From contig JABYQN010000006.1 in NCBI GenBank assembly GCA_022606135.1, forward strand, positions 1,860,001 to 1,924,000: a DNA stretch of 64,000 nt, given 5' to 3'. Positions 35,519 to 62,725 of the stretch are shown here, in pieces. The position numbers and the translations under genes are program-made. The notes under the pieces are model-generated. The model was given only the letters and a program-made list of their open reading frames with translations. It ran no database searches and was not told the origin of the DNA. Position 1 is the stretch's first letter; the number at the start of each line of letters is the position of its first letter. The DNA is from Fomes fomentarius (lineage: Eukaryota > Basidiomycota > Agaricomycetes > Polyporales > Polyporaceae).

Positions 35519-38500
35519 ATGGCCTCATCAAATCTTCCCTCCGCGATGGACGTCGATGAGGCAGCGATTGATGAGGGTCTGTACTCAAGGCAACTGTGAG
35601 TTTAGACTGATCAAGGACGCGTATCTTGACTGACTAGAGCTCCCAAGTTATGTCCTTGGGCATGAAGGTCAGTATACACGCGTGTGCTACTAGCTGTTGT
35701 TACTGAATACTTTGTTCGCCAGCCATGAAGCGCATGGCGGCATCCAATGTCCTAATTGTTGGATTGAATGGTCTTGGTGTTGAGATTGGTGAGTGATTCC
35801 ATGTCTATGTACGATTTCTTGAGACCGATCTTAATGTATTAATGCGAACAGCGAAGAACATCGTTCTTGCTGGTGTCAAGTCTGTCACAGTCTACGACCC
35901 CGAGCCGGTGAAAGTCTCCGATCTCAGCAGTCAGGTATTGCACACTCTCATCCGGAGGTGGTTCATTTACTCAGACCTATTCAGTTTTTCTTGAGACAAG
36001 AAGACGTGGGAAAGTCTCGCGCAGAGGCTACTGTCCCCCGTCTTGCCGAACTCAACGCCTATGTTCCCGTACGAAACCTCAATGGTCAATCTGGGCAAGA
36101 GATCTCAGTAGACTTGATTAAGGGCTTCCAGGTACGTCTCATTTGCAACCCCATCGATACTGCCATAAATGACTGATTTACGTGTGATAGGTCGTGGTTC
36201 TTGTAGGCGCGTCGCTCAAGAAGCAGTTGGAGATCAATGACTGGACACACGAGAACGATGTGCATTTCATTTCCGCAGACACACGTGGTCTCTTTGCGTT
36301 AGTAGCTCTTGAATCCGGTTTCACTTTGCTCATACTAACGTTGCAGCGCAGGACGGCATTCAATGACTTTGGTCCCAAGTTCACTTGCGTGGACCCTACC
36401 GGAGAGCAGCCACTCTCAGGGATGATCGTCTCAGTTGACAAGGTGCGATTTGACGCGCTAGGCTGTGTGCTGCAGCAGTTGACTCACGCAATGACCGTTG
36501 ACTAGGACAACGAGGGAGTCGTTACTTGCTTAGACGAGACTCGTCACGGTCTCCAGGATGGTGACTTCGTCACGTTCAGTGAAGTTCAGGGTATGAGCGA
36601 GTTAAATGGGTGCGAGCCTCGAAAGGTCACTGTCAAGGGACCCTACACTTTCGCAATCGGCGACACGTCGAATCTCAGTGATTACAAGAGTGGTGGCATC
36701 TTCACTCAAGTCAAGATGCCCAAGATCATCCAATTTGTATGGCAGCCTTCTCATCTGGAAGCATTACACCCTTTGACATGACGTGGTTCACTAGAAATCG
36801 CTACGAGAGTCGCTCCAGTCCCCCGAGTACTTCTTCACCGACTTCTCAAAGTTCGACAGACCAGCAACCTTGCACGCCGGGTTCCAAGCCCTCTCTCAAT
36901 TTGAGGAGCAACACCAGCGTCGTCCTCGTCCACGTAATCCGGAGGATGCTGCTGCTGTGGTTGCATCTGCGAAGAAGATTGACCCGGACGCAGATGAGAA
37001 GATCCTGACCGAGCTTGCATACCAGGCGACTGGGGACCTTGCTCCCGTAAATGCTGTGCTTGGTGGTTTCGTTGCTCAGGAGGCACTAAAGGCTGTCTCT
37101 GCGAAGTTCCACCCTATGATTCAGCATCTGTACTTTGATTCCCTCGAGTCGTTACCCACAGACCGCCCAACTGAGGAGGATGCACAACCCATTGGCTCGC
37201 GCTACGACGGTCAGATCGCGGTGTTTGGCAAAAATTTTCAGGACAAGATCGGTAACTTCCGCGAATTCCTCGTCGGCTCTGGTGCTATCGGCTGCGAAAT
37301 GCTGAAGAACTGGAGTATGATGGGTCTCGCAAGCGGACCTAACGGCAAGATCCATGTGACTGATCTCGATACCATCGAGAAGAGTAACCTGAACCGTCAA
37401 TTCCTTTTCCGTCCCAAGGACTTGGGCAAGTTCAAGTCTGAAGTCGCGGCGGCGGCTGTTGCTGAGATGAACCCCGACCTCACGGGTAAGATCGACAGCA
37501 AGCAGGAGCCTGTTGGTCCTGACACTGAGAGTGAGTTTCATGACCATTCTGCATATGACTGTTACTGACAGATGAAAAGACATCTACGACGCGGATTTCT
37601 TCGCTAGTATCGACGGTGTCACAAATGCACTCGATAACGTGAAGGCACGTCAGTACATGGACCAACGTTGCGTCTTCTACTTGAAGCCTCTTCTCGAGTC
37701 CGGCACCCTCGGCACGAAGGGTAATACTCAGGTCATCGTTCCTCACTTGACGGAATCATACTCCTCATCACAAGATCCCCCGGAGAAGGAGACCCCGGTG
37801 TGTACCGTCAAGAACTTCCCTAACCAAATTTCGCATACCATCGAGGTGAATTTCAGGACGCGACATTGAAGATCTATACTGACAGACTTGTAGTGGGCGA
37901 GGCAGGACTTCGACAGCCTCTTCGTGAAGCCTCCCCAGGCCGTCAACTCCTATCTGTCTGAGCCCAATTTCCTCGAGAACAACCTGAAGTACTCCGGTCA
38001 GCAGAAGGAGCAAGTCGAGCAGATTGCTTCATACCTCGTGACGAACAAGCCGCTCACCTTCGAGGAATGCATCGTCTGGGCGCGTCTCCAGTTCGAGGAG
38101 AAGTACAACAACGCCATCCGCCAGCTCCTCTACAGCTTGCCGAAGGACGCTGTCACTAGCACCGGCCAGCCGTTCTGGAGTGGTCCTAAAAGGGCTCCCG
38201 ATCCGCTCACCTTCAACTCTAACGACGTGAGTGAAACACAGGCATGCCCTCGTCACTACAACTCATACATGCTCCTCAGCCGGCACACCTGCAATACATC
38301 ATCGCTGCTGCGAACCTCCACGCATTCAACTACGGCCTGCGCGGCGAGACCGACCCGGCGTACTTCAAGAAGGTTGCGGACGAGGTCATCGTGCCCGAGT
38401 TCACTCCCAAGAGTGGTGTGAAGGTTCAGATCAACGACAACGAGCCCGCTCAGAACGATGCTGGCGGTGGTACGTCTATATTGACGTTTTCTCCTGGGCA

Positions 38501-39333
38501 TCATCAATAAATAATGGTTCGACGATGCTAGACGGCAACGATCTGCAAGACTACCTCAAGCAGCTCCCTCTTCCTTCATCGCTGGTCGGCTACCGTCTAA
38601 ACCCCGTCGAGTTCGAGAAGGACGACGACACGAACTTCCACATCGACTTCATCACTGCTGCGTCTAACCTGCGTGCTGCGAACTACAGCATCACGCCCGC
38701 TGACCGGCATACGACGAAGCAGATCGCAGGAAAGATCATCCCTGCCATCGCAACCACCACGTCGCTGGTCACCGGTCTTGTCTGTCTCGAGCTCTACAAG
38801 GTAACTACGCATGAATCAATGTTCTGCGTGCAGATGCTAAATACACTCCCTACAGTTCATCGATGGGCAGAAGAAGCTTGAGGACTACAAGAATGGCTTC
38901 ATCAACCTGGCACTGCCGTTCTTCGGCTTCTCTGAGCCCATCGCGCCGAAGAAGAGCACTTACAACGGCATCGACTGGACGCTGTGGGACCGGTTCGAGT
39001 TCAAGAACGATCCGACGCTCAAGGACATCGTCGATTATTTCTCGCGCGAGCACAAGCTCGACGTGAGCATGGTCTCGCAGGGCGTCAGCATGCTCTGGAG
39101 CTCGTTCATCGGTAAGAAGAAGAGCGAGGAGCGCCTGCCAATGAAGTTCAGTAAGCTCGTCGAGCACGTGAGCAAGAAGCCACTCCCGTCGCACGCGAAG
39201 CACCTCATTGTCGAGGTCATGGTTAGCGACGAAGAAGGCGAGGATGTCGAGGTCAGCCGCTTCCAGTCTTTGTCCGCAGAATGCACCACTGACAGTGTGA
39301 ATCCAGGTTCCATTCATTGTAGTCCACCTTTGA
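35519..39333 (+). CDS. UBA1: Ubiquitin-activating enzyme E1
   Basis: Fifteen exons: 35519-35595, 35648-35667, 35723-35788, 35852-35934, 35985-36131, 36191-36297, 36352-36442, 36506-36736, 36795-37530, 37580-37845, 37894-38226, 38280-38469, 38532-38800, 38856-39251 and 39307-39333; 3039 nt (1012 aa), the usual E1 length. E1 adenylates ubiquitin and loads it on its own cysteine. The inactive Rossmann half has [16 protein letters not shown]; the active half has [16 protein letters not shown] and [10 protein letters not shown]. The catalytic cysteine is Cys594 in [16 protein letters not shown]. The ubiquitin-fold domain closes the protein. The second exon is only 20 nt; joined to its neighbours it gives the conserved YSRQLYVLGHEAMKRM. 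The final exon has 8 codons (VPFIVVHL), in place of the common VPFVKI-type end. Nuclear and cytosolic, essential in yeast. Confidence 0.95.
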
Positions 39334-39534
39334 GCGTGTGCGAGCGTGCTGCAGTAGAAGAGAAACAGCGTGTATAACGGTGTATAGAAGTTCAAACCCA
39401 GTGTAGCTATACAAACAAACGTCCTTTCGCGTGGGCTGTAGCGAGATAGCAGATATGCGAGAGCGATACGGTCAATAGCAATGAACACAGCATTCTAGAT
39501 ATTGTCACCGAAATCCAAATCATCGCAGGTCTAG

Positions 39535-41620
39535 TCACGGACTGATTACAATGACCTCTGGGTTCTCCTGTTTGACGCGTTTTGGGGAACGTATCTCGTC
39601 CTTCAGATGGAGTTCTTCAGTTGTGGCGGATCGCTTCCGGGGCAAACTGGGAGGCTCATTAGCCTGTTGAGATGTCGAGGCCGACGGGCTTGTGGATGAA
39701 TTAGCGCCGTCATCCGCGAATGTCTCCGCATTGTCATCATCTCGTTCAGCCAGACAATCGTCTAAGTACGCTTGCAGTTCTGCGATAGCTATCAGTGCTG
39801 ACCCAACGAGGCATTCTCCCCGCACCACTCACCTGCGGCATGGTCCCTTGAGACGCAATACCAGCCATTGCGAGTCCGTCGGTATACATTCTAGGAGGCG
39901 ACTTATGAGCTAGGAGAGTGTGGGATCTGATCGTTTGCTCACCTTTGGGCGATCCGCGAACTCCACCCAGGGGCCTTGTTTGGTGGTGAATGTGTCCCAG
40001 GTATCGATCCTCTCCGCCTTGTATAGCGCCATCGCCCTGAGGTCCTCCTCGGTGACCCTCACGCCACTCGTGCCAGTCCGCCTGCGCCGAGGAGGCCCAG
40101 GCTTGGGGGCACCTTTCTCGTCGTCACCGCTATCCTCTTCCGGGGCATCGTCAGCGTCGTTGTCACTCTGTTCTTCTCCCGAATCATCTTCAGACTCTTC
40201 TTCTTCATCTTGACGAGCCTTCTTCTCCGCTTCAATCAAAATCTTGTCTGGGAGCTCGGAATTGTTGTCCCAGTGTTTCCGCCACGCGTCGGCGCTACGA
40301 TGAGGTCTTGTCTATACAGTGAATGGAGCCTATATTAGCTACGTATACGTCTACACCCGCCGACGTCAGCGGGCACTGACCTCCTTTGCCAGCTCCTTGT
40401 ATAGCGTGGTCTTCGACGGAATCCTGCCATTGTTGAGACGCCAGCGCAGGAAGTGGATGAAGAATATGCGTTCTTCGTCAGAGAATCTTGCTTGGTCGGA
40501 CGTGGTCGGGGCCTTAGGCTTCTTTCTAGGGTCGGATGGGGGTATTAAGGTGTCGACGTGGTACTCGCCCACAGGCTCGCCGCGCCTTGATCTGTTAGCG
40601 GACATGCTGTCGCTGACAGAGACGGGGTGTGTCCGTTGAGAGGACCCGCGGTTGGGCGTGCTATGCGCAGGCGAGCACGCCTGGACGTTCGCAGCTTGTA
40701 CTCGGCGTCGGTCCGAACTCCCAGTGGCGGTCGGGGGAGGATTACTCAAGAACCCCTTCGCGGATGCACTGGCATTCTTGCGTTTCATCGGATCGCGATG
40801 TGATTGGGAATTGGTACTGTGACTATTTAGTGTAGTCAGTATCTTCCTGTTATTCATAGCGAACGCGATTCCGCACCGAGGAAGCTCGCGTGAGGGCCGT
40901 TGAGGAGAGCGCGGTTGAGATGAAGATGAAGTCCCAGTGTGGTGTTCAGATCCAGCTACTAGGGGGTATATCTTTGGATATAGCTTCTCAAGATTACGCA
41001 GAAAGTAATCCTTCCAGACTGACCAAACCAGTCGTCAACATTGAAAACGTACATGGTGTGCATGTCCAATCTCACCAGTATCATCGTGCCCATTGACCTT
41101 ATAGCAAGCCTCATAAGCTCAATGATGTATCACGACGTCACGTTACGCTTACACTATGGAGCTTCTCCAACGCCTGGCAAGGATCCAATCCTCTCGCCTT
41201 CCACTTCTTCATCGTGTCAATCAGCAGCTGTTCGTCCTCTAGTGTAGGCTCAGAGGAAGAGGTTTTGTTGAGCATAGGAAGTAGAGCGGTTGTCACGGCT
41301 GTAGCTATCTCAGCAACGGACGGCGGGGAAGGATTGGCCTGAGCAGCTTGAGGTTGTAGTGCTCGAACTTGGAACTGAGCTGGATGTTGTACCCACTGCT
41401 GTTGCATTCCTATACCACCCATCGCCATCTGAGGCTGCCATCCTTGCCACACTGCCTGTTGCTGCTGTGGGAAATGTTGCATCTGCGCGATGATTTGCAG
41501 TGGCGTCGGAGGTATGGGCAGTTGTGCGGATCCATCGCCAGGTACGTGCGCTTGAGGATATGCCATATGGTTCGATGCAAGGGGTGGCATCATGGGCTGG
41601 TTGAGATTGTTTGAATTCAT
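39535..41620 (-). CDS. Array gene P1: triple-HTH, Rap1-Myb-like protein
   Basis: Exons 41620-41153, 41097-41076 (22 nt), 41018-40877, 40822-40381, 40311-39943, 39890-39833 (58 nt) and 39779-39535; 1746 nt (581 aa). N-terminus Q/P/M-rich. HTH1: DEQLLIDTMKKWKARGLDP, QALEKLHS, then VWKDYFLRNLEKLYPKI. HTH2 (Rap1/TERF2IP-like Myb): FSDEERIFFIHFLRWRL, LYKELAKE, then PHRSADAWRKHWDNN. An acidic stretch follows. HTH3: VTEEDLRAMALYKAERIDTW, WVEFADRPK, then RRTRNGWYCVSRDHA and ELQAYLDD. The C-terminus has basic patches and ends NPEVIVISP, a candidate SUMO-interacting motif. The 54-nt intron 40823-40876 keeps the frame open but matches a phase-2 intron in all paralogs. Probably nuclear and DNA-binding; no function known. 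Confidence 0.8.
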
Positions 41621-41751
41621 GGCGTCGAGGGGACTCGGAATCGTAGGGAGGGCAGGGATGCTTGCAGTACAAGTCAAGAAAGCCCTGGCGCTTGTTGAGG
41701 GCGCTTCACTTGTACTATTAGTGGGTCTGATACATAAGTACATATCCTGGA

Positions 41752-43148
41752 TCAATACTCCGGACTCCGAAGGTCTCTCTCACGCAGCCCATGCGACTCG
41801 GACGGACGGCCAGCTAGATCTCGTTGCGCCCGTCTCCTCCTCTTGTATTCATAGACGTAAGCCTTCAGCACTTTGCACCTCGCTCAGTTTGCGTACTCTT
41901 GCCAGATACAGCTTTTGCCTACCTGGCAGTGCTCTTTCTGCTGCTTTACTCCATCCGTCTAGGGAACGACGGTCTGCATTCTAGTGTGTGCCAGTCAATA
42001 GGCTGCATATCTACTAACAGGCCAACGCATCAAGCAGCGTACTTTTTTGCGTCCCGCAAACGTCTTCCAAAACGACTTAGTCGTCCACGGTTCACCTCGC
42101 AGCGGGGGATGCTTGACCACGTACCGAGCCATCGCTCGGAGGTCTCTTTCTGTCACCCTCTTCTGTGCACCATCACGGTTCCAGCACCTGCCAATCCGCT
42201 TTGAGGGAATGAGCGGAGTCTCCGTGTCTGACGAAGACTCGGAGCTCTCGCTGGCGACGTAGGTGGGGTCATCTTCCGGATCCGAATCTGAGGACGCGGA
42301 CTCTGGCTGTGGACTCTCGATGGACTCGGAGACATACCCTGTGGGCTTCTTAATGGGGCCACGAGTAGCTTTTTTGTGTGTGATGCTGGCCATCTCTTGC
42401 CCACGGGGTGTCGGTCGTCTGTGACTGCCATTCGGTCCATTGGGTCGAGAAGCGGACGACGACGGTCTTGGATGAGGTGAATGGCGGCTGCTCGACCCGA
42501 CCATCCGGTGAGTACACTGACATGATCTCGAAAGTCAGGATCTCACCTCACTGTAGCGCCTTTCGGCCGCGATGGGGGAGCATCAGAGCGTGTAAAATGG
42601 CCATGGATCTTTACATGGAGCCTTTCGTAGTGCTCGAGGAAGTAGTTCTTCCAAGCTAAACACCAGGATCAGGCAAAGGATTCCTGTGAGGATCATTGCC
42701 ATCTCAGTCGAGTATGTAGCGCTGTTCTCACCGGTCTCGGAATGACGATTCACCTATGCATTCCACAGCGCACCACTGATCAATCTTCCTTCACTACGGC
42801 TCAAGGTGGCACAAAACTCACGTTATGCAGCCTTTCTAGCGCCTGGCGCGCCGTCAACCCTTTTGTGCGACAGCCTCTAAGAGCCCTTACTAGAATGTCT
42901 TCATCGTCAGGAATGGAGCCCACTGGCATGGCGTCTCCGAGTGTCGCAGGCGACTGAGGCTGTACTGGTATCATTGAGGATACTTGCATGGCAGGCACGC
43001 CCGCCGGGAGCCACTGTGGCTGCTGCCACCCTGGGAATTGGAATACAGCGGGATATGCGGCGATGCCAGGCTGCATCTGCGGCGCTATTGGGTGATTAGC
43101 TGGGGCCTGCACCTGCGGAGAACTCATGTATGTGGCGTAGGTCGACAT
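41752..43148 (-). CDS. Array gene P2: paralog lacking the Rap1-Myb-like domain
   Basis: Exons 43148-42822, 42753-42732 (22 nt), 42655-42547, 42466-42043, 41980-41923 (58 nt) and 41870-41752; 1059 nt (352 aa), fully open. HTH1 is complete: DEDILVRALRGCRTKGLTAR, QALERLHN, AWKNYFLEHYERLHVKI. HTH3 is complete: VTERDLRAMARYVVKH, SFWKTFAGRKK, RRSLDGWSKAAERA, VLKAYVYEYKRRRR. HTH2 and the TYIPPS linker motif are absent: exon 4 runs from the Ser-rich linker straight into the acidic region before HTH3, as if exons 4 and 5 were fused with loss of the domain and its intron. The open frame and normal splice sites argue for a functional short form. Its stop lies 131 bp upstream of the P1 start. P1 and P2 share the 22-nt micro-exon length. 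Confidence 0.75.
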
Positions 43149-43615
43149 GGAATAGTGAGCAGATTGCTGCTGGCTCTCCACTGGCAATCGATGGAGGTGG
43201 GATGCACGCTGCACACAGGCGATGCGAAGCGTGAACCATATAATCATCGACGACTCGCAGACAGCTGGCATGCGTTGGAATGAGGTAAAAGCCTACAACT
43301 TCCGTGTCATAAGGTTCAGCTCTCACATTCTTGGCCTTCGGGAAGTACTATAGTAGCGTTGGGTAGGCATATCTTCACACGTTATAGTAGGCCACGTCCC
43401 GGTATCATGTATATCCCAACTCCCTGTGCTACCAATGAACCACTCTTGGCGCTGCAACTTCTGAGCCATGCTGCCGTGTCCCTTCTCTGCATCAGTTTAG
43501 TGGATTTCTTTCAAGCCGGGGCCTCGGATACGCCGTTCCAATGCAACACCTGACCTACCACCGTTCACATGCATGTGTGCTAAGTTCCGGTGTAGGGTAC
43601 AAGATGCAATGAACT

Positions 43616-45507
43616 TTAATAGGGAGAAGGTACGATGTCGCGGCGATTCGGGTGAGGGAAAGCGCGTTGCTGAGGCTCCTCGCGAGCCAGGGCCCTTGTT
43701 CCGCTTGCATGCATAAGCTCTCCGTAATACTTCATGATCTCTAAAACAATGTCGGATGGTCAATGCGCGCATTGTGGAATCACACGCAAGACTCACTGTC
43801 CTTATGTTGTCGTGCAACACTATACCATGCGCTGGTGGAACGGCGTTCACGATTCTAGCCAAATCCCAGAAGAGGTCAACAAACGAGCCACTAGCGCGGA
43901 ATGATCACCAAGCCTGAGTTGTCCCACCTTTGGCCTATTGCCAAACGTCACCCATGCATCGTGTGGGGACTTGAACTCGTGCCAGACATGGCGTTTCTCG
44001 AACATGAACAAGCTCATCTCCCGGAGGTCTTCCTCAGTGACGCTGCACTTCCCACGTCGAGACGAGCTTTTGCAGACCATCCGGGGGGTGTTACTGTAAT
44101 GAGCAGATGCCCCTCCCTCGTCTTCCGCTGAGTCGCCCGGATGGGCGCCAGTGCTCTGCCAAGGGTGACTCGATTCGTACATCCGTGCCTCATTCTCCGC
44201 CCGCTTGCATGCCGCGATGTATATGTCATCAGGCAGAGACGGGTTAGCATCCCAATGCTTCTTCCACGAGCGTTCGCTGTGGTGGGGTGCCTATTTCAGC
44301 GTGTAGGAGTTGAGCCTGAGCATCGACCTGACTACAAGTCCAAAGACATACCGCCTGTGCCAACTCCCACTCTAACACGGATCTCGCCGGGACGTCGCCA
44401 CTCTGCAAACGCCAGCGCAAGAAATGGATGAAGAAGATCTTGTCGTCGTCCGTGAACAAGCTGGTGTCGCGCGGATCTCTGCGCGGTGCCGTGGGTTTGG
44501 CGAAGGTCGTCGAGGGAGGGATGTAAGTATCTGCGTGGAAATCGGGCACAGGCCGACTCCTGCGATCGCTTGATGTACTTGAAGTAATGGAGGACGATCG
44601 CTGAGTACTCCTGTCCGGGTCTTCGTATGTGGCAGGACGTTGAATACTCGGGGACGTGGGTTGCGAAGGACCGGAAGAAGCATCATCGCGGGCAGAAACT
44701 GTGTGGGTACGCGGCGGAGCGAAGGGAACCGCAACGGAGTGGTGTGTCAATGAGCTGTTACTTCTAGATTCAGCCATAGAATTCAGCAAATGCTCATCAA
44801 AGACGGAAGGGAATAAGGGATGGGTACTCAGTGGAAAAGCGACTTGGGTTTTGATCTCGAGCGGGAAAAGTTCTAGTTTCGATGGGAGAGGCGGTTCCCC
44901 TGGACATAAGCCATTCAATCATGCCTAAGAGGGCTGCCCCGGACCCTTGAGATCTGGTCAGTATATCTACGTCGTTATCGTTACGATACTCACCCAAAAT
45001 CGTATGATTCTCGTAGTACCGAAGACATGGTCAGATGGTTCATTCAGGAAAGAACATATCAAGCGCTTACTTGTTGCAATCGTTCTGCCACTTGATGCGG
45101 ACTCAGTCCTTGTACCCCCCCGCCTCAAATGCATTCACCAGCATTTGCATGTCGCTTGTAGAAAGATTGGAACTGATACTAGGTCCCGTCGCGGTCCTCT
45201 GCGTGGATGCATCAGAGGAGTTGGCGTTAGAGGTAGCTGGTAGCACTGGTGGATGTAGTCGTGTCGCCGCCTGGAATGGTGGGTTGGCATCCCGTTGTGG
45301 CACAGATTGAGGAGTTGAAGGGAGCACCTGAGGCTGCCAGGCGTCGCGCAGATCGTAAAGCGAATACTGAGTTGTTTGTGGTGGCACCTGAGATTGTCGG
45401 GGAGGCACTGGTTGGTCCGGAGCAGGGTTCCCTTGAGGATCGGCCTGAGGAAGACCTTGAAACGTGTGTACAGAGCCCGGCGGGAGTCTTCGCCTCCAAC
45501 CCTCCAT
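43616..45507 (-). CDS. Array gene P3: triple-HTH paralog with one apparent frameshift
   Basis: Exons 45507-45071, 45009-44994 (16 nt), 44945-44828, 44763-44352, 44290-43928, 43854-43797 (58 nt) and 43740-43616; 1529 nt, one base short of a full frame (about 509 aa if intact). The break is in a run of seven C (45115-45121, + strand) between the two HTH1 segments QMLVNAFEAGG and GLSPHQVAERLQQ. Downstream everything is open: ALLGMIEWLMSRG, TYIPPS, FTDDDKIFFIHFLRWRL, PHHSERSWKKHWDAN, VTEEDLREMSLFMFEKRHVW, AWVTFGNRPK, STSAWYSVARQHK. It has the shortest C-terminus (ends RRDIVPSPY) and no SIM. The start could be 45516 instead. Either a very young pseudogene or a homopolymer sequencing error. Confidence 0.68.
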
Positions 45508-45956
45508 AGTCACCATGTAGAGGCTGTGACTGGTGGATGACAAGCTCGAGAACAAAGAGAAGAACACGGGGCAGGATGTTAGATGTAAGCCCAGTATTTA
45601 TGCGTCTGGGCTCGTGGTGCTGCGGTTCATTATGTGACTTGCTCAGTGTTAAGGTTACCGTACCTCCACTTTTGACCTCAAGATGTGACCCTGAGTCGGT
45701 CCTCGCAATCCTGACTTCCACCTTCATCTTCGTTCGCCGCATGTCAGCATAAAACCCTACCAAAGGAACAAGCTTCTCAAGAACCTAAATCGATCCCTGA
45801 CCTACCACGGGGAAGACAACAATACTGGATTTCCTAACACTGTGTCTATGTCTGGAAATTCATTCCTGTGAGGTCACACTGGCAACTCGTCACAGTAAGA
45901 TTACGGATACGTACACAAATCATGTCGACCGCATATAGTCCACGGGCTATTGCAAT

Positions 45957-46301
45957 TTACCCATTCCCAGCGCCGACACCGACACCAGTCTCATTCGATG
46001 GCCCTACTGACCCGTTATGATCATACTTGGCGCGCTTTCCATCTGAAAGATCCTCTTTGTCGCCAATGGTAGCAGCACGTTTTAGTGGCGAGGTTGCGAC
46101 AGTGGCAGGTGCGGTATCAGTCATCGGATGCGTCTCCTCAGGTGAAGCAGTGCGACATCCAAGTCGTGCGTTGCGCAAGAGCGTGCCAACCCTATTTCTG
46201 GGCTCGATGCGCCTTTCTGGGAAGATAATCGTTAGCGCTGAAGCTCTGCAACATAACGATCGATGACTTGCGAGCGGTGAGTCGTCTCGATGAAGTGCCA
46301 T
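45957..46301 (-). pseudogene. Relic of an array-gene C-terminal exon
   Basis: An open stretch encodes SPLKRAATIGDKEDLSDGKR followed by AKYD, which resembles the basic C-termini of P1 (PRKRSATTEELHLKDE) and P5 (GKRPSEDEHSVVAEKRAKLD). Upstream at about 46245 an acceptor-like gttgcag is followed by AGCTTCAGCGC, like the start of the last exon in P1 and P5 (codons for E-L-x-A-Y), but the frame then meets a stop. No HTH segments are recognisable up to P4 at 46779. Interpreted as what remains of a sixth copy. The similarity is short, so this is tentative. Confidence 0.45.
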
Positions 46302-46778
46302 AGGAAAAACATTAGTACCTTCTCAGTTTCAGACGCCCTTGCATACGTTCTTCGCCGAAGGATGTCTGATAGACTGAAGAAATCAACTCGAAAAGGATCC
46401 GGGCATTACTCACCTCTATCCAGCACGTCAGTAGGTCTCCCCAATCGTCTAGGGGGAGACTACTACTCACCAGTCTGGAGTCGCATGGACTCAGGATGGC
46501 ATTGGCAGGTAGGGTGGGCGCCTATCCCTTGTGCCAAGCACGTGGACGCGCGCTTGTTGACCCTTGGCTATCTATCGGTCTTCCGAAGAACCCTCCATCG
46601 TCCTCGTGGACATTTCCCTAACAGTTTTTAAAGGTTTGACATACAGATGCTGTGCACAACAAGTAGCGACATAACCCAAACTACTCTACTCCATACACAT
46701 GACCGAGAAAAAAGCAACAACAATAACAATAACCGTCACTGCCATCGACTTCGTGATCATCCGCTCCAGGCCCAAGAG
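46302..46778. other. Spacer between the relic and P4
   Basis: About 480 bp with two gtgagt sites on the minus strand but no recognisable family exon. Possibly further decayed relic sequence. Confidence 0.3.
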
Positions 46779-49106
46779 TCAGTCAGAGTCGAGCAACTCA
46801 ATCACTTCAGGAGACTCCACCTTCCGACGTTTCGACTCGTCGTCCAGCACTGAGTCGACCAATAGTACTGCATGCTCTTCCTGTGCTTCTGCTACACTCC
46901 GTTTCTTCGACACAGGGCTCTTTTCGTCATCATCTTGCGGGATCTCTACGGTGCGTACTGCATTGATAGCGTTGGTTGCTAAAGACTCTGGGAGCGCAGG
47001 TGCAGCAGCCTGACTCGGGGCGAGTGGGCCAGAAGGAAAGGCTAGAAGGAGTTCCGTCTCCTTTGCCTCGGTCGCGGTCGCGGCAGCCTTGATGTACTCC
47101 TCGTAGTACATTAAAATCTCTGCAGCATCGTCACATATCAAGACGCTCAATCGAGCATACCACAAACAAGAGAACGACGCACTCACCTCCCGCATGACCT
47201 CGAGCGGCACTGTTCCACCCAAAGTCAGTGCGCTTTTGGTTCTGCCACACTACGTCAGTTGATCGCACGTATACCATGAGGGAGGTCAACTCATGTGCAG
47301 ATCCGCGCACCTCAGGACGCCGAGCGAATTCCTTCCACAGGGCGAAGTTTCTCGTGCAGTCTGTGAGCGCCCACGGCGCTTCTCGACTAGGTACAACGCC
47401 ATGGCCCGCCTGTCATCGTCCGTGACCTTCACACTATAACCGCCCCGACCTGCACGTCTATTCCCTGCATTTGCGCTCGCAGACGATACACCATCGTCAT
47501 AGTTCGGGGAGGAGTCACCGTCAATCTCATCGTCGCCGTTGTCGCTCGACTCAGCCTCTGACAGAGAGGTTAGCGAGTCTGAATCACTGGGCCCACACGC
47601 TTGCAACCACTTGCGCGCCGCGATGTATATTTGGTCCGGTAGGCTCCAGTTGCCGTCCCAGTGCTTGTGCCATGATTCTGCATCGTGGTGGTGCAGGGTC
47701 TGGGATCGAATAATCGCGTCAACGCGGCACGTGGAGGCCGATGGCATTGCGAACGTCATCACGGTCTTGACTTACCTCTTTCGCCAACTCCTCCAGCAAG
47801 GTCAACTTTGACGGCAAGCGCTCTATATCCTGCAGCCGCCAGCGCAAGTATTGGATGAAGAAGATCTTGTCCGCATCGGTGAAATGGCTCGCTGACCCAC
47901 CGGATTCCTCGCTAGGTGCTTCGGGTTTGCGTGAGACCGTCGGGGATGGTGGTATGTAGGTGCCGGCATGATAATCAGGTATGGGATCGCCTCTTAGCAC
48001 CCGCCCATTCGCTGACTCCGAACTTGCGATACGGGTGCGTGTGTGACTACTAACCCCCGTTTTGCTGCGAGAAGGCGCGCTGGGATTTTTGGCCGAACGA
48101 AGTTGGTTGGGTGGCCCAGCATGAGCTTTGCGGGAGCTGTGGGCCGCATCGCGAGCTTTATGTTTCGCACCTTCGGCGGGGCCGGCGTGTTTGCGTTGTG
48201 CACTATCGGTAAATAGTGAGTCATCCATTTACTCGACATTGACATGACTAACCAAAACTCACCGGGTAGGTATGTGGTTCGCGGATCGCGCCGACAGGCG
48301 ACGTCCAGATGCTGAGGACCGAGCCTCGCGGGCCTTGCCCCCGTACTCGGATGGGTAGACGTTCGGGAGGAGCTTTTCAATGTTGCGCACGAAGCCTTCC
48401 TGCCAACCTTATTATTGTCACCAACCCATCAATTCCTCGCAGCGCCCGGAAGCACGATGAAGGTGCTCACCAACGTCTGCGTTCGACTAGGGTTGCCACG
48501 TTAACAACATCGTCCAGCATGAGACCTCACTACTGGCAGACGCACCTTCTGCAACTTATCCACGACCTCGCCCATGGTCAGCCCCTGGGCCTTCCCCGCC
48601 TTGAGTGCATCCACAAGCATCTTTTCGTTGTCTGATGATAACAGCGTCTTCTCCTTCACCTTACTGCTAGCAGGGTCACGATGACGGCGAAGATACGGGC
48701 GTATCCTCTCAGCCAAGCCCAAGTCTTGCACTGGAACCCGTGGCGCTTGGGGCTGCGGGTAGCCCATAAGCTGGGCCTGGAACTGTACCGGCATAGCCTG
48801 GGGTATCCATCCGACTGGGGCCTGAGGGTGCAGCTGCGGGACTGGGATCCCATATGCGCCATTCGGCTGCCATCCCTGCCACTGAGGATACGCCTGCATC
48901 ATTGGCTGTGGCGGCATCATGTTCTGAGGAAGAGGCTGCTGCTGTATGGGCTGGGGTACCAGTATATTTTGGGGAGGATTGTGCATCGGCATACCCGCAG
49001 GCTGAGGTGGTACCAGCGGTTGGCCATGATGGTAGTACGCGGCGCCGACGACACCCTGCCAGTGAGGCTGGAGGTACTGCCCTGGAATAAAGCCGTTCGG
49101 GTTCAT
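46779..49106 (-). CDS. Array gene P4: triple-HTH paralog with one apparent frameshift
   Basis: Exons 49106-48546, 48486-48471 (16 nt), 48407-48263, 48202-47776, 47699-47311, 47241-47187 (55 nt) and 47119-46779; 1934 nt, one base short of a full frame (about 644 aa if intact). N-terminus rich in Pro, Gln and Met. HTH1: NEKMLVDALKAGKAQGLTM, VVDKLQK, GWQEGFVRNIEKLLPNVY. HTH2: FTDADKIFFIQYLRWRL, LLEELAKE, HHHDAESWHKHWDGN. HTH3: VTDDDRRAMALYLVEKR, then a shift near 47371-47382, then LWKEFARRPE, RTDFGWNSAARGHA and EILMYYEEYIK. The C-terminus carries a basic patch and ends ESPEVIELLDSD, a SUMO-interaction-like motif. Either young pseudogene or assembly error; all splice sites are intact. Confidence 0.68.
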
Positions 49107-49829
49107 GTAACAGAGGTCACAGATCTTGGGGGAGGGTCAAAGTTGGGTCGAAGTGCCAGCATACGTGACAGTCCCAGTACTGCCAGACGTGGACTTCGGT
49201 CGGGGTGGCGTGCAATCCGAATCTACCTAGTTGGTAGCACACCGTACGTCAATGACTAGACGTGCTTCTGCAGTATTGTCCTCCATCGTCCTCCATTGTC
49301 CTCGAGGCGTCGAAGTTGATCATTAACGGCGGAAACTCGCGTCGCCCAAAGTCCGTCTTCGTCTCCGTCTCCGCGACTGGCAGCAGGCGGTCTAGAGGCA
49401 CCAGAACGCCAGCCGCGCGCCTCGATCTTCTACCGTGGCTGCTGATCTGCCACTGGTGAGGAGCACACATTATGTACAACGACCACAGCGACAGCTTGCG
49501 CATCCGCATCCGCACTTGATTAGTCCGAGATTCCTTCGTGGCACGCCTCTAGACCAAGCTACATCCCTAACACTCTCCTCCATGTGCGTGCGGTTGCAGT
49601 CGGCCGCACAAGGCGTGGTGTGCTTCGTGCCTCCGTCACGGTGCGTGTCCGTTAGTAGTAGCCAGGCACATGGTCGGATCGCCGCGTTTGTCCTCACGCC
49701 GAACTCGAAGGATGCACATCAATATTGCACCCGCCAAAGCACGGGTCGTTTGTATTCAGCCAGTCGACAGCGACCTACACGAAGCTTACAAGAAGAAAAG
49801 TTCCAAGTGAACTCTCTCTCGTCTGCACC

Positions 49830-52282
49830 CTACGAGTCCGGGTCCAGTTTCGCTCGCTTCTCTGCCACGACGGAGTGCTCATCTTCCGAGGGACGCTTGC
49901 CTGCCCAGTGCATGGCATCTTCCGATGTACCTGTACGCACAGCGTTCTCAGTCGCAGGAGACACCGCGGCCGGCGAGTCATGCTGAGGAGGAGTGTGCGC
50001 CTTTGGGTTCTGCCTCGCCCCCTCTCGTTCTGCCATGTATTCGTGGAAATACGCGCCAAGCTCTGTTCAAGTGTTCAACGTTCAGTGTTGAATACCAACA
50101 TTCAGTAAAAGAAGAGTGAGAGAAGGGTGGACCACTCACCACTCGCATGATGCCTCGCAATCCCAGACCATCCCGCAAGCGACCGGAGGCTCCTGTTCTG
50201 AGCAGCCCCCTCCTAGCTCAGCACGACGCCGACATTGCTAATGAAAGGAACAGTACACGTACCTCGGGCCGGTCCGCAAACTCCCTCCACCGTCCTTGGG
50301 TGGAACTTGTCTGTCCCCACACGGCGTGCTTCTCGACCATGTACCGTGCCATCTTGCGAAGGTCCTCCTCAGTGACCTTCAAGCCGGGCACCTTCATCCG
50401 CGGCTTGGGAGGCTTGGGAGGCTGGCGTCGAGGATTCGGGGCGCTGACGGGTGAAGTTGACTGGCTTTGGCCCAAGTTCTCACCGGCGCCCTTGCTTTGG
50501 TCGGATTGCGCGTCCGACTCCTCTTCACTCTCAACGTAGCTGCGTTCGTCCTCGCTTTCGCTTTCGCTCTCGCTCTCACTGTCGTCACTCCGCTTGTGCT
50601 CGCTTGAAGGCGGACGCTTCGCGTTCCCGCCCTCCTTCTCACGCTTGCGCGCCGCAATGTAGATCTGGTCGGGGAGTTCGGGCACGTCGGCCCAATGGCG
50701 CTTCCACGACTCAGCGCTGTGGTGTGGGGTCTGGGGAAACACAGGTCGAGAACAGAGCGTCCTTCAGCACAGTAGCACTTACCTGTTCAGCGAGCTCCGC
50801 ATATAACGCCTCCTTCTTTGGCACGGCGCCTTTGTGCAGCCGCCACTGCAGGTAGTGAATGAAGAACACCTTGTCGTCGTCGGTGAAGCGCGGATCCGCA
50901 TCGTCGGGGTCGCGACGCGGTGGGTCCGGTTTCATGTCGGGTGGTAGATAGGGTATGTACGTGTACGCATGGTACTGCTCGACCGGGCCGCACCTTGCCA
51001 AGCGAGAATTGGAGGTCCTGCCAGTGGACTGGGATGACGCAACAGCGTCGCGTCGAATAGATGATCTCTTCCGCGCCGCGGCGGCTTTCTGGCTGGTGCG
51101 TAGTCGACTCAGTGGTTTGGGAATCGTGGGTGGCTTCCTTTGGACGTTAGGGACTGGTTTGGTCTTCTTGGGTATCACCACTTGCACTTGCGGGCGTGGA
51201 GGCCTGGGAAGATAGTCAGTTTGGAAGGTAGGACACGCGCCATCCCATGAGACAACATACACAGCGCGCTTGTGTACCACTGGAGAGATGGGGGAAGGCT
51301 CCGAGGGTGGTGCTGACGAAGATGATGCAGGCGAAGCAGGCAGTGCGTTCTCACCAGATGAAGACAAACGGTACGCTTTCTTCGCGATTCGCTCCAGGTT
51401 GTCGAGGAGGTAAGAAGTCCAATCTGCAAATGCAAATGATGAGTGCACGATCCGCCAACCATCCCTGACTGTGAGTGAGTAGCCTGCTCACCGACGCCTG
51501 CTGCACGCTTTTCGCGTAGCGATGACCGAGTTACCCGACGATCAGTATGCAGCATTCAGTCCCCGCCTTGCACTTGGAATCAAACGCGAGACGTCGCGAC
51601 TCACCCGCTGGAGCTTTTCCACGACCTGCCTCGCAGTACGGCCCTCGGTCGTGCCCCGCCTCAACGCGTCGACCAGGACGCGTTCCTTCTCCTCCGGCGA
51701 GTACGCGCGCACCGAGGCAGGGCCAGGAGCGATCGCGAACTCCCCCGCCGGCAGCGACCATGCACTACTACCAGCCTGCATCGACGTCTGCGCCGCCGGC
51801 GGTAACTGGATCTGTACCGGGGGTACCCACTGCTGCCGCTGAGGGACGTGCATCCCCATCCCGGAAGGTTGAGCCATCTGGTGGCCCATCGAGGCCTGAT
51901 ACCGCAGCGCCGCAAGATCCTGCTGGTGCTGGTGCTGGTGATTCTGATTCTGATTCTGATTCTGACCGTACTGCAGCTGGTGCTGCTGCCATGGCGCCGG
52001 CTGCTGCTGCCAGTAGGTGGAGATGCCGGGGTGCGAGGAGGGGTTGAATGGAATCTGCATCTGCATCTGCATCTGTGACATGGGCAGCGGCGGCGCAGTG
52101 CCAGTCGCACCGGCGGCGGGGTACGCTTGACTCTGCATCATCTGATGCTGCTGGCTCCCTCCGCCCGCGGGGAAGAACGCGGTCATGTGGTTGACGGAGG
52201 ACGCGTTGACGTCGGCGTTGGCGTTGAACTGGGCTTGAGCTTGGGCGAACGCGTTCGCGTTGGGTCTGGCATTGGCGTCCAT
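49830..52282 (-). CDS. Array gene P5: longest triple-HTH, Rap1-Myb-like paralog
   Basis: Exons 52282-51605, 51507-51492 (16 nt), 51423-51261, 51203-50783, 50730-50263, 50197-50140 (58 nt) and 50062-49830; 2037 nt (678 aa), in frame. The N-terminus is Q/N/H/M-rich with imperfect repeats (QNQNQNQNHQHQHQQ). HTH1: EKERVLVDALRRGTTEGRTA, QVVEKLQR, DWTSYLLDNLERI. HTH2: FTDDDKVFFIHYLQWRL, LYAELAEQ, PHHSAESWKRHWAD. A SESESESE acidic stretch precedes HTH3: VTEEDLRKMARYMVEKHAVW, RWREFADRPE, LRSLAGWSGIARHHA, ELGAYFHEYM. C-terminus EKRAKLDPDS looks like a nuclear signal. The 57-nt intron 51204-51260 is hidden in an open frame but has a good branch site and the phase-2 position shared by all copies. It is the best full-length reference for the family. 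Confidence 0.82.
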
Positions 52283-53087: not shown

Positions 53088-55302
53088 TCAAACGAAGCCC
53101 AGCCCCCGTCTCAACGCCTCCGTCAGGTCCCAGCCGTCCGTGTCCCCATGGACGTCGAACAGGTTCACCCCGCGCATGCCCGCCTGCCGCACCAGCTGCG
53201 CCTTCATCTCCAGCGACACCGGGTCGTCGTACGTCACAATCTGCCCTGCCCCCTCCGACCGCAGGTACGGCGTGCTCGAGCACCCGTCCCACATCCGCAC
53301 GAACCCCCCGTCTCCCGCGAAAAGCCGCCGCCGCTCCCCGTTCTCGATCCCCGCACGCAGTAACGCGGCCGATGACAGCGCGCTGAACCTCTCCGCGTAT
53401 GGTGCTGCTCCTGCTCGATCGGACGTTCCGGAGTCGTAACCAGAGCCAGAGCTAGAGTTAGAACTAGGGGGGCCAGACGAGTCAGAAGAGCCAGAAGAGC
53501 TAGAAGAGACAGTCGTGTCGTTTATGGAGCCCAAGTTGCCGCCAGTACCAGTCGTGCCGGTGGAGCCCAGCTGCGTCGCAGAAGTCGAGGGGGTAATACC
53601 AGATACATAGGGTTGTATGACGCCCTGACTGACGAGCTCGCGAAACTGCACTTGCCCGCTGTCCGTCCCACCATCGTCGTTCTTGACTCTGATCGCACCA
53701 GGCAGGAACCCGGTCACGGCCTCGGCCCAGTCTAACAACGGCGCGCGTCGGCCGCGCCGATTTCGACTCTTGCGTTTCCGTGTCCGGGGGCGCCCAGATC
53801 GAGAAGCCCGACTCTGCAGCAGCTTTTCGGACGACCGCGAGATGTAGCCGTACGAGGGCACGCCGAGAACAAGTTGCCGGGGCGCAAAGCCGGCTGCAGT
53901 CCACAGCTGCAGCGCGGATAGTGCGTTCGCGTTGCTCTGTGTCGAGTTGTTGCATGCGTTACTGAGTGGGGCGTTCGGACCGGGCCGGCTGGATGCTACG
54001 CATGGGCAGGGTCATGTTATTAGTGCGCGGGTCAGAGACAGGTACGGAGCAAGTAACAGAAGCACAATCACGCTAAATTCAGGGGGTGAGGGAGGAAGAG
54101 CGGGAGCGACAAGGGAAGATACCAGAGAAAGAGGAACACTCACAACCCCATGTATCGTAGTTCATCAGCAGCACCCAGTCGAGCACTCGCGCGAACTCGG
54201 AGACATTCTGCATCGGCTTCCCGTTCGCATCGGCAAACGGGACCGTCTGCGTCGCCGCGGTGATTGTCGCGTTCGGAGGGAGCGTGTTGCGGAGGGTACG
54301 GAGGAAATCGAGAAAGTTTGCGGAATCCTCCGGGCTCTCGAGGTTTCCGCCATCGCCGTCCTGGCTCGGGTACTCCCAGTCGATATCTATGCCGTCAAGC
54401 CTGTACCGGTCGTACATCGTGAGCAGGTTGTTCGCAAGCGTCACGCGGCCCTGCGGATCGGCCACCGCAGAGGAGAAGTATCTGCGGCGGAGCAGGTGAG
54501 GACTCAGTGGTCAGCGCGAAACCCTTTAATAAGGTCAGAGGCGACACGATAGAGTGCCAGAAACACGAGCGAGCCCGCGCTTTGTGGTGAGGCATATGAA
54601 GGAACCAGCAAGTGTGAGATGAAGGGACGGAGGATGAACTCACTTGCTTCCTGTCCAGCCGCCCACGCTGAGCTTGACGCGTTTGCCGCTCTGGTGTGCC
54701 CGGTCAACGAGCCGCCGTAGTGCATCCGGCGCGTCGTCAGACCCATCCCATGATAGCTGGAAGTTCTTCTCTGGAACCGTGAACGCAAAGTCGATCCAAT
54801 CAAAGCGGCCGAAATCGATCCTTTCTGGAGGGAACTCGTCAATCACCCAATCAGGATAGTATGCCATTACAAGAGGGGTTGGGTTCGGATCAGGCGCGCG
54901 AGGTTTTGAGAGCGAGGGCTGTGTAGGAAGGCCCGCGCTTGGTTGGCTGGCGGTGACGGTCTCCTGCGGTGTGGAGGAGAAAAGCGGAGAGCTGGGAAGC
55001 GGAAGCCTCTCGCCCGGAAAGACAAGTATTGGCCCCGAGCGCTCGTGCGCGGCTGGATTCGCGCTGTGTGATTGCGAAGGGGTGGGAAATGGGAGAGGTG
55101 AGGATAGATCCAAGGTGGTCGTGAATGTCGTATAGATGGTAGACGTCTCCGCCACGATCACTGTTGTCCTCATGGTGGCAGCGGGGTCCAGCTGTCGCCG
55201 CAGGAAGTGATTGTGTGCCTCCCACGGTGGCGGCATGCAGCGGGCGAAGAAGGGGAAGAGAAGAGGAAGGCCCGTAATTAAGATATACGGTTTGGAAGCC
55301 AT
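53088..55302 (-). CDS. GH18 chitinase
   Basis: Exons 55302-54644, 54481-54144 and 53995-53088; 1905 nt (634 aa). The two introns (162 and 148 nt) are the longest in the window. A signal peptide (MASKPYILITGLPLLFPFFA) and a Ser/Pro/Thr-rich linker lead to the (beta/alpha)8 barrel: MAYYPDWVIDEFPPERIDF, VKLSVGGWTGSKYFSSAV, then the catalytic DGIDIDWEYP with Asp249, Asp252, Asp254 and acid Glu256, then LLMNYDTWG and a closing GVNLFDVHGDTDGWDL. It cleaves beta-1,4-GlcNAc chains and is secreted. Odd features are a basic insertion (RTRKRKSRNRRGRR) and a Ser/Gly-rich stretch of roughly 60 residues inside the C-terminal half of the barrel. No carbohydrate-binding module is seen. Confidence 0.9.
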
Positions 55303-60400: not shown

Positions 60401-61443
60401 GGGCTCGTGTGTCCCGGCGCACGTTTGAGAACACCAACATAATTAGCCTTCCAGAATGTTGTGGTCGGCAGAGTCGGTCCATACCTTTACGAAATCAGCT
60501 CTCAGAAGTCAGACCTTCAATGTGAACTGAGATCACATCGATTACCTCGGGGGAAGCACGAAGAGACCGACATACCTACGTAGGGCCGACGACGCGAGGG
60601 CAAATTCAGTGACCATGATTCGAATACCCACTCATGAAGCCTCATGGATCTGGCGCCGCAGGTAATGCAGATAGGAAGCCCTGTCAACACTAGATGAGGA
60701 TGATAGAACTGTCAGAGAGAGCATACCTCGCATGTGATGAACAGCACTTGGGGTGAGTGAGATCATGTCGTGTGCTCTGTGCCGAAAGACATATATAGCA
60801 TCCACCACAATGATATCTGTCGGTAGTTACTTTGACATGTGGACGTATGCTGCTGATGTCGGGGATATGCTTGGGTAGGCATCATTTCGACCGCAGAACG
60901 CCGGTTTTGCTAGTCTGATTACATGTCAGAGCAGCTACGGAGAAGCAATCTAGCACACGACATGAGTGGGAATGTGAAAGCATACGTAGTACAACTTTCT
61001 GACGTATGGCCATATAGGCCGTGGCTGGCATGCGTTATCGACATCTGTGGTTTAGGAAGTCAAGATACGACGGTCAGAGCGGCCAAAGGAGGTTGTAACG
61101 ATGGAACGACCGCTCATTCCGAGGTATGTAGCTGCAGGGAGGGGAAGGAGGCGGTAAAGTTGTGACTACAATGACTAATAAGGCAGGTTAGTGGACGTGT
61201 ACACAAGATGGAGAGGTGCAGGTGATTAGATAGATACAACGAGACAATACGATTTCAGAAAGCATTACGACGATAGAGCGTGAACATGGTATGAATACAA
61301 CTGTGGGTAAGCATCCAAATACGGATAAGTTAGACTTGATGAATACACATGTAGTCAAGTCCGAGAGGGAAGTCGTACCGTATGTACTACACAAGACGGC
61401 AATGCGTCCGTGGTGCGCGCCACGATTGGCCATTCGAGTCCAA
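57436..61443. other. About 4 kb without a recognisable gene
   Basis: Apart from the possible second exon of the preceding gene (57416 to about 57700), only short frames are found on both strands. No tRNA, transposon end, long repeat or family motif seen. 58400-58850 is AT-richer with several tatata runs. Confidence 0.4.
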
Positions 61444-62725
61444 TTATAGTCCCATACGTTCCGCGAGCGTCCGATCTCCGAAGGCGTCGATATTCGTATT
61501 GGTATTGTTGCCATTTGTCCGTCTGCCACTACGGCGACCTCCTCCTCCTCCTCCTCCTCCTCCCCTCCACCAGCACCTGCAGCAGCACCTGCAACAGCGC
61601 CGCCGCCGCCGCCACTACTACCACCACCACCACCACCACTGCGGCGAGAGGGCCTATCATGCTCCCGGTCGCGATCACGCTCTCTGTCGCGTTCTCGGTC
61701 ACGGTTCCTAGGACGGTCTCTGTCCTTATCGCGCTCCCGGTCCCTATCTCGGTCGCGTTCTCTGTCTCGGTGAGGTGGTCGATCGCGCTCACGGTGGGGC
61801 GACCGTGGCCGGGAGTGATTATCCTCGTCTACGTCCATGCCCACAGCCTCGACCGGCTTCCTGTCTTGAGACATACGGGAGTCACGGGAAACGCCGCGGG
61901 GCTGCGTCGCATTAGCTGCGGAAAGGTGGGGTTTGGGTGGTATCGGGAGGGACACGTTGGACACAGCGGGAGATATCTGAGTCTCAGAGATACGAGGCTT
62001 TTTGTATGCGCGCGGACCCGTCGGCGGGAGTTTACCACTGCCATTCGCAAGATGGGGGGGAGCATGATGTGACCGAGGCGCTGGGGACGGATAGACTTGG
62101 CGCCCGTGTGCTTGGAGGAGCGCGTCTTGTGCCTTCTCCCATTCAGCCCTATAAGCACGGGTCAGGGGACGCACGGAGCACAAATATATAGGAACGCACG
62201 ATAGGGACGCAATGACTTGATGTGATTCTGCGGCCCAAAAGACTGTCAAGCAGGCCATTCCTCCACTCCTGAGATATCTACACAACGCACCTCGAAGCGC
62301 CCCCTCCATCTTCTGCACGACTCGTCGGAGTGCACGGACGTCTTCCTTCAGTCGCCCAGTTTCTCCAACTTTCAGGAGCTCATACAGCTCGTCATTCTCC
62401 TCTTGAAGAGTCTTAGCCCTCTGGACGAGGGCGGTCATTGCAGAACTAGAGTTAGATGTGGCGGCTGCTGCATGATGGTTTAGGTGGGGTAATAGTAACG
62501 ACATCAACGCCGGCGGTATCGTGGTTGCCTCTGTGGCTGAGGCCGGGGGTTGGGTCGCGAGGAATTGGCGTAGATGCGTGACCTCATCCTGGTACGCGTC
62601 GAGATGTGAGCCGTGTACCATATCGGCCGGGAAACAGTTATACGCACAGTGAGCTCAGCGACTTGCGCGTCCCGTTGGCGCAAGAGAGTCTCTAGCTCCA
62701 ATTCTCGAGACGTTGGCAAATCCAT
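61444..62725 (-). CDS. WTAP/Mum2-like coiled-coil protein
   Basis: Exons 62725-62648, 62588-62291, 62227-62200 (28 nt) and 62148 to about 61444. Coiled coil at the N-terminus: RELELETLLRQRDAQVAELT, DEVTHLRQFLA, AKTLQEENDELYELLKVGE, RLKEDVRALRRVVQKMEGAL, ESHQVIASLS, AEWEKAQDALLQAH. The ESHQVIASLS block made by the 28-nt exon resembles WTAP/Mum2, an adaptor of the m6A methyltransferase complex. The rest is disordered with an RERDRD-type repeat and Gly/Glu runs encoded by trinucleotide repeats. After the Glu run two endings compete: the continuous frame runs to 61188 with a hydrophobic tail; a shifted frame ends at 61444 as DAFGDRTLAERMGL, which looks more protein-like and would need an intron or a one-base change. 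The family call is moderate. Confidence 0.6.

What the first reader, a model, noticed from the sequence alone, without database searches (positions are those of the whole stretch)
39535..52282. Undescribed-looking tandem array of five triple-HTH, Rap1-Myb-like genes
Five head-to-tail paralogs share three HTH segments in fixed order, a Q/N/P-rich N-terminus and identical intron phases, yet are strongly diverged in sequence. Rap1-type Myb proteins are normally single-copy telomere or chromatin factors, so a local expansion with ongoing loss suggests a lineage-specific DNA-binding family under rapid change (telomere or subtelomere recognition, genome defence, or allorecognition are possibilities, all inference).
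Basis: partly seen in the sequence, partly recalled or inferred. Interest (0 to 1): 0.88.

Follow-up and report, generated by a model that had tools for sequence, protein, structure and literature searches.

The report
Ancient array of Rap1-like Myb genes
In the tinder fungus, a mushroom-wide gene that is usually found once per genome, and that probably makes a DNA- or chromatin-binding protein with three Myb-like parts, sits as a row of five fast-changing copies, some with parts lost, and the row is older than the genus.

Summary
Largely real. Window 39535-52282 (minus strand, Fomes fomentarius) holds five head-to-tail paralogs. P1 and P5 are intact with three HTH segments; P2 has all three but a frame break in HTH3; P3 keeps HTH2+HTH3; P4 keeps HTH1+HTH3. 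So "five triple-HTH genes" overstates it. AlphaFold gives confident HTHs for P5 and a Trametes relative; HTH2 and HTH3 are Rap1/SANT-type Mybs.

It is not an expansion of telomeric Rap1: a stronger Rap1-Myb gene lies on another contig, TTAGGG repeats end contigs, and the array is 1.08 Mb from its contig end. The array belongs to an apparently undescribed Agaricomycete family, found as one copy in 40 of 40 named species outside Polyporales. In Polyporaceae it is multi-copy (two or more in 9 of 19 species found) and faster-evolving. The array is old: P5 and P3 pair with Daedaleopsis genes, and one Fomes-only clade is rejected (AU p=0.00014).

Best reading: nuclear DNA/chromatin-binding regulators under birth-and-death, HTH2 the most conserved, outer HTHs varying or lost. 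DNA binding is inferred, and near-neutral domain charges speak partly against it. Genome defence and allorecognition have no positive evidence.

The parts
49830..52282 (-). P1, intact gene, 7 exons, 678 aa, HTH1+HTH2+HTH3
   Evidence: open spliced frame, GT-AG introns, phases 0,1,2,0,0,1; exons 52282-51605, 51507-51492, 51423-51261, 51203-50783, 50730-50263, 50197-50140, 50062-49830
51377..51688 (-). P1 HTH1 (over two introns and a 16-nt micro-exon)
   Evidence: profile hits
50647..50971 (-). P1 HTH2, Rap1-type Myb
   Evidence: PF08914 24.5 bits; profile 60.7 bits without Fomes rows
50141..50376 (-). P1 HTH3
   Evidence: profile 41.6 bits without Fomes rows
46779..49106 (-). P2, three HTH segments, one frame break inside HTH3
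   Evidence: exon phases and reading frames; HTH1 48632-48358, HTH2 47970-47613, HTH3 47426-47191
43614..45516 (-). P3; as annotated (44777-43614) it encodes HTH2+HTH3; the upstream HTH1-bearing exon is frame-broken and its recognition helix is not found
   Evidence: GenBank model P0010; HTH2 44537-44210, HTH3 44041-43798
41752..43148 (-). P4, intact open frame of 359 aa with HTH1+HTH3, no HTH2, one intron fewer
   Evidence: HTH1 42908-42606, HTH3 42156-41921
39535..41620 (-). P5, intact gene, 7 exons, 581 aa, HTH1+HTH2+HTH3
   Evidence: GenBank model P0001 confirms introns 1-4 and the HTH1-HTH2 junctions; exons 41620-41153, 41097-41076, 41018-40877, 40822-40381, 40311-39943, 39890-39833, 39779-39535
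40969..41239 (-). P5 HTH1 (over two introns and a 22-nt micro-exon)
   Evidence: profile hits; AlphaFold 10-residue block means 94-97 over its core
40228..40560 (-). P5 HTH2
   Evidence: profile hits; AlphaFold block means 92-98 over its core
39834..40056 (-). P5 HTH3
   Evidence: profile hits; AlphaFold block means 94-96 for the part held in the cut GenBank model

Best explanation
The five genes are an old tandem set of co-orthologs of one Agaricomycete family of nuclear proteins: a disordered Q/N/P-rich N-terminus, three Myb/SANT-type HTH domains separated by disordered linkers, and in most intact copies a K/R-rich tail. The ancestral gene is single-copy in most orders sampled. Near the base of Polyporaceae it duplicated in place and sped up, and copies have since been gained, trimmed and lost (birth and death). 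Shown here: gene anatomy, family membership, domain folds as confident predictions, age of the array, faster change, domain loss. Inferred: the proteins bind DNA or chromatin as sequence-guided regulators of transcription or chromatin state. HTH2, the most conserved domain between copies, would act as anchor, HTH1 and HTH3 would set the site or partner, and the disordered N-terminus would recruit other factors. The two-HTH copies P3 and P4 would then read only part of the site, or compete with or complement the full copies.
Against: No binding, localisation or expression data. Foldseek finds no significant PDB match for either model (best E 6.9 and 5.4), and the VIA lists also hold unrelated bacterial HTHs at similar Z. 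HTH1 is only weakly tied to the Mybs by profile (prob 36 and 22). Net domain charge is near zero in Polyporaceae rows (HTH1 -0.4, HTH2 -0.9, HTH3 +1.5) and lower in HTH2 and HTH3 than in the other members (+2.8, +4.2), so protein or histone binding is a live alternative. P5 itself reaches only 13.1 bits, E 0.14, with PF08914.
Confidence: 0.55

Rival explanations
1. The HTHs are SANT-like protein- or histone-binding modules (as in CoREST, or the Myb of human RAP1) and the proteins are scaffolds of a chromatin complex that do not touch DNA directly.
Confidence: 0.25
2. Telomere or subtelomere factors derived from Rap1.
For: PF08914 similarity of HTH2; a Rap1 duplication with one telomeric and one subtelomeric paralog is published for Hansenula (PMC6510891, abstract).
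Against: A separate, stronger Rap1-Myb gene (47.4 bits over two exons that I joined) is on C10. Telomeric repeats are canonical TTAGGG. The array lies at C6:1.90-1.91 Mb of 3.00 Mb. No BRCT domain or Rap1 C-terminal domain was found in the family by Pfam in 81 members at E<=0.01.
Confidence: 0.07
3. A genetic-conflict locus: paralogs track a changing DNA target (transposon, satellite or centromere repeat) or act in self/non-self recognition.
For: Fast change that coincides with tandem duplication and loss; outer HTHs differ more than HTH2 between copies.
Against: No target known; no site-wise selection test was possible (DNA only for Fomes; dS not estimated). Nothing tested points to allorecognition; the neighbours are housekeeping or metabolic genes.
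Confidence: 0.12
4. Mostly decaying duplicates: one or two copies (P1, P5) do the ancestral work and the rest are pseudogenes drifting.
For: Frame breaks in P2 and in the first exon of P3.
Against: P4 and the annotated part of P3 have open spliced frames, and copies with the same domain sets occur in Daedaleopsis (P0071: HTH1+HTH3; P0012: HTH2+HTH3), though those rest on gene models and P4's orthology to P0071 is allowed (p 0.326), not shown.
Confidence: 0.25

Closest known systems
Rap1 / TERF2IP (PF08914 Rap1 Myb domain)
   Same: HTH2 aligns with the Rap1 Myb over its length; HTH3 superposes on human RAP1 Myb 1fex
   Different: Three Myb-like domains; none of the 81 members scanned listed BRCT or a Rap1 C-terminal domain among the six Pfam families found; the genome has a separate Rap1-Myb gene
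Hansenula polymorpha RAP1A/RAP1B (PMC6510891, abstract and outline seen)
   Same: An old duplication of a Rap1-Myb gene kept with divergent roles
   Different: Two copies of true Rap1 in yeasts; here a different family, up to five copies in tandem, with whole HTHs lost
Tay1 / TayL2 Myb proteins of basidiomycetes (PMC7952879, passages seen)
   Same: Basidiomycete multi-Myb proteins; TayL2 is about 550-700 aa, some annotated with three Mybs
   Different: No classical Myb family (PF00249, recalled accession) appears among the Pfam families matched by the 81 members. No TayL2 sequence was compared directly
CoREST / SANT domains
   Different: No detectable sequence family match; low Z

Membership tests
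Rap1 (telomeric) | Rap1 Myb domain PF08914 above cut-off | tested here: inconclusive
   P1 24.5 and P5 13.1 bits against a cut-off of 27.1; 37 of 81 relatives match at E<=0.01; some relatives carry PF08914 in precomputed annotation
Rap1 (telomeric) | BRCT domain and Rap1 C-terminal domain | tested here: not met
   Not among the six Pfam families matched by any of 81 members at E<=0.01. Weak test: Pfam also listed neither for the pieces of the C10 Rap1-type gene
Rap1 (telomeric) | being the genome's main Rap1-Myb gene | tested here: not met
   C10 gene scores 47.4 bits with PF08914
Rap1 (telomeric) | telomere binding or interaction with a telomere protein | not testable with these tools
   no binding or interaction data
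Agaricomycete three-Myb family (named here) | HTH1, HTH2, HTH3 in that order with disordered spacers | tested here: met
   P1, P2 and P5 have all three, P3 and P4 two each; profiles from non-Polyporaceae members alone still hit
Agaricomycete three-Myb family (named here) | no separate slow-evolving ortholog in the Fomes genome | tested here: met
   P0045 (Gelatoporia) as query: 6 matches at E<=10, the best 3 in the array, the rest E 0.038 or worse; exon-wise search, best candidates only
Tay1/TayL2 | classical Myb (PF00249) repeats similar to TRF Mybs | tested here: not met
   PF00249 not among the Pfam families matched by 81 members at E<=0.01; accession recalled
SANT/CoREST-like | fold similarity well above background | tested here: inconclusive

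The most novel reading that the evidence does not exclude
In Polyporaceae a conserved chromatin-binding Myb gene was drafted into a genetic conflict. Its tandem copies became target readers that change their outer HTHs while keeping HTH2, and split two-HTH copies (HTH1+HTH3 and HTH2+HTH3, seen in both Fomes and Daedaleopsis) work as complementary or interfering partners of the full copies, for example against repeats or at centromeres.
Probability: 0.13. Interest if true: 0.85.

Novelty: new variant of a known kind. Interest (0 to 1): 0.55.

Why it matters
It replaces a one-genome oddity with a family-level question: why does a gene kept as one copy in five orders of mushrooms turn multi-copy and fast in Polyporaceae? 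The array offers natural domain-deletion variants (P3, P4) for dissecting what each Myb does, and a wood-decay lineage with cultivable species in which to test it. No function is on record in what I searched.

Tried and rejected
Recent, Fomes-only expansion: rejected by the AU test (p 0.000136). P1+P2+P3 as one Fomes clade: p 0.022, and P4+P5: p 0.00025 (these groups were chosen after seeing the tree). P4 as ortholog of Daedaleopsis 1153843: not rejected (p 0.326), not shown; its HTH1 is nearest to Lentinus 131941 (66%) and Daedaleopsis 1153843 (64%) but its HTH3 is not.

A sixth, C-terminal relic at 45960-46322, suggested by eye, scored 0.5 bits with a tail profile: dropped. The outside hit at C6:542592 (E 0.052) lies beside retroelement-like integrase reading frames: taken as chance.

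First two homolog searches were swamped by Q-rich words (7,993 and 7,986 candidates scored; 13 hits each). Masking the linkers gave 77 hits. Sequence search of the PDB gave nothing of use. Foldseek gave no significant match; the human RAP1 Myb row appears for the Trametes model and not for the P5 model, whose HTH3 is cut short in the GenBank model. dN/dS was not computed: only Fomes DNA was at hand and the paralogs are far apart. Expression: the main text of the Fomes co-expression paper PMC11827164 does not mention 816465, 816241, Myb or Rap1 (passage search); its supplements were not available.

Rows left out: A2 used 10 of the 12 masked rows printed; A4 used 81 of 87 proteins (without P0032, P0062, P0068, P0082, P0086, P0087); the large tree used 85 rows (P0001 and P0010 replaced by the window copies; P0082, P0086, P0087, P0032 and P0084 out); the careful tree and AU tests used 38 of those 85.
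Full report
What is there. The window is C6:1,860,001-1,924,000, so the array is about 1.08 Mb from the nearer contig end. There are no N bases. On the minus strand, in order of transcription, lie P1 (52282-49830), P2 (49106-46779), P3 (45516-43614), P4 (43148-41752) and P5 (41620-39535), with gaps of 723, 1262, 465 and 131 bases.

State of the copies. P1 (678 aa) and P5 (581 aa) have open spliced frames with seven exons and intron phases 0,1,2,0,0,1. P2 has the same exons but one frame break in the exon that starts HTH3. P3 as annotated starts at 44777 and holds HTH2 and HTH3 only; the upstream exon is frame-broken and no HTH1 recognition helix is found. P4 has an open frame of 359 aa with HTH1 and HTH3, lacks HTH2 and one intron (an earlier choice of the last acceptor gave an early stop). 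The start of the HTH1 recognition helix is coded by a micro-exon of 16 nt in P1 and P2 and 22 nt in P4 and P5.

Chance and circularity. With all Fomes rows left out, profiles still give HTH2 exons at 26-61 bits in P1, P2, P3 and P5, HTH1 first halves at 20-37 bits in P1, P2, P4 and P5, and HTH3 first halves at 27-42 bits in P1, P3, P4 and P5 and 13.0 in P2. Fifty dinucleotide shuffles peaked at 9.8 (HTH1), 9.1 (HTH2) and 16.5 (HTH3) bits. At the DNA level only short coding stretches repeat between copies (54 and 60 nt, four copies each; 33 nt, three copies).

Not Rap1 itself. PF08914 gives 24.5 bits for P1 and 13.1 for P5 against a cut-off of 27.1, while a gene on C10 gives 47.4 bits over two joined exons. 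Pfam listed no BRCT or Rap1 C-terminal domain for the pieces of that C10 gene either, so only its Myb identifies it.

Family and breadth. A masked three-HTH alignment found 77 proteins; with the earlier searches 87 in all. Outside Polyporales 40 named species have one protein each (orders recalled: 17 Agaricales, 12 Boletales, 8 Russulales, 2 Gloeophyllales, 1 Atheliales); Boletus edulis has two entries at distance 0, counted once. Of 19 Polyporaceae species (family recalled except Fomes and Daedaleopsis), 9 have two or more proteins in one named genome; Dichomitus squalens has several but across strains and is not counted. Laetiporus, another Polyporales genus, also has two. All these are lower bounds: the database returned only 2 of the 5 Fomes copies.

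Age. In the careful tree (38 rows, 212 columns) Polyporaceae rows form one clade (100/99); P5 pairs with Daedaleopsis 1153847 (99/93), P3 with Daedaleopsis 530093 (96/83), and P1, P2, P3, Daedaleopsis 530093, Lentinus 569192 and Polyporus form one group (95/96). Holding the five Fomes copies together is rejected (AU p 0.000136). P4 is unplaced. Thus at least the P5 and P3 lines are older than the split of Fomes and Daedaleopsis.

Rate. On the 85-row quick tree the mean path to three Boletales references is 2.89 (range 2.35-3.38) for 34 Polyporaceae rows, 1.80 (1.50-2.42) for 7 rows of other Polyporales, and 1.40-1.58 for Agaricales, Russulales and Gloeophyllales. The ranges of the first two groups touch: Laetiporus 726581 is a long branch and P4, at 2.35, is the slowest Fomes copy. 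This is faster protein change, not proof of positive selection.

Domain loss. HTH2 is absent from P4 and from Daedaleopsis P0071 and P0002; HTH1 is absent from P3 and from Daedaleopsis P0012. The Daedaleopsis cases rest on gene models that I could not check against DNA, and P0002 is the ortholog of the three-HTH copy P5, so a skipped exon in its model is possible.

Function. I commit to nuclear DNA/chromatin-binding regulators at 0.55. Against easy DNA binding speaks the net charge: -0.4, -0.9 and +1.5 for HTH1-3 in Polyporaceae rows, against -1.7, +2.8 and +4.2 elsewhere. The confidences of the rivals overlap, since decay of some copies or a conflict can be true along with the main reading.

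Literature. Title, abstract and full-text word searches listed no paper on this family; the library lacks most subscription journals. Seen: passages of PMC7952879, PMC7744550, PMC11827164, PMC6073129 and PMC10506213; abstract and outline of PMC6510891.

Noticed in passing
window 41076-41097, 42732-42753, 48471-48486, 51492-51507: Micro-exons of 16 or 22 nt encode the start of the HTH1 recognition helix; the length differs between copies.
   Followed up: partly
window 36795-39374: Ubiquitin-activating enzyme E1 (ThiF, SCCH, UFD domains), convergent with P5.
   Followed up: no
window 53091-54011: GH18 chitinase-like reading frame on the minus strand, upstream of P1.
   Followed up: no
window 4980-8887: NPC1-like sterol transporter.
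   Followed up: no
window 61191-62654: WTAP/Mum2-family protein.
   Followed up: no
L001 (C10:1953011-1956058): Rap1-type Myb gene, 47.4 bits with PF08914; its other parts have no Pfam match above cut-off.
   Followed up: partly
L010 (C6:541092-544265): Retroelement-like integrase reading frames; the HTH2 query's E 0.05 hit here looks like chance.
   Followed up: no
P0002, P0012, P0071 (Daedaleopsis nitida): All three annotated copies found carry only two HTHs each; whether a three-HTH copy exists there is unknown.
   Followed up: no
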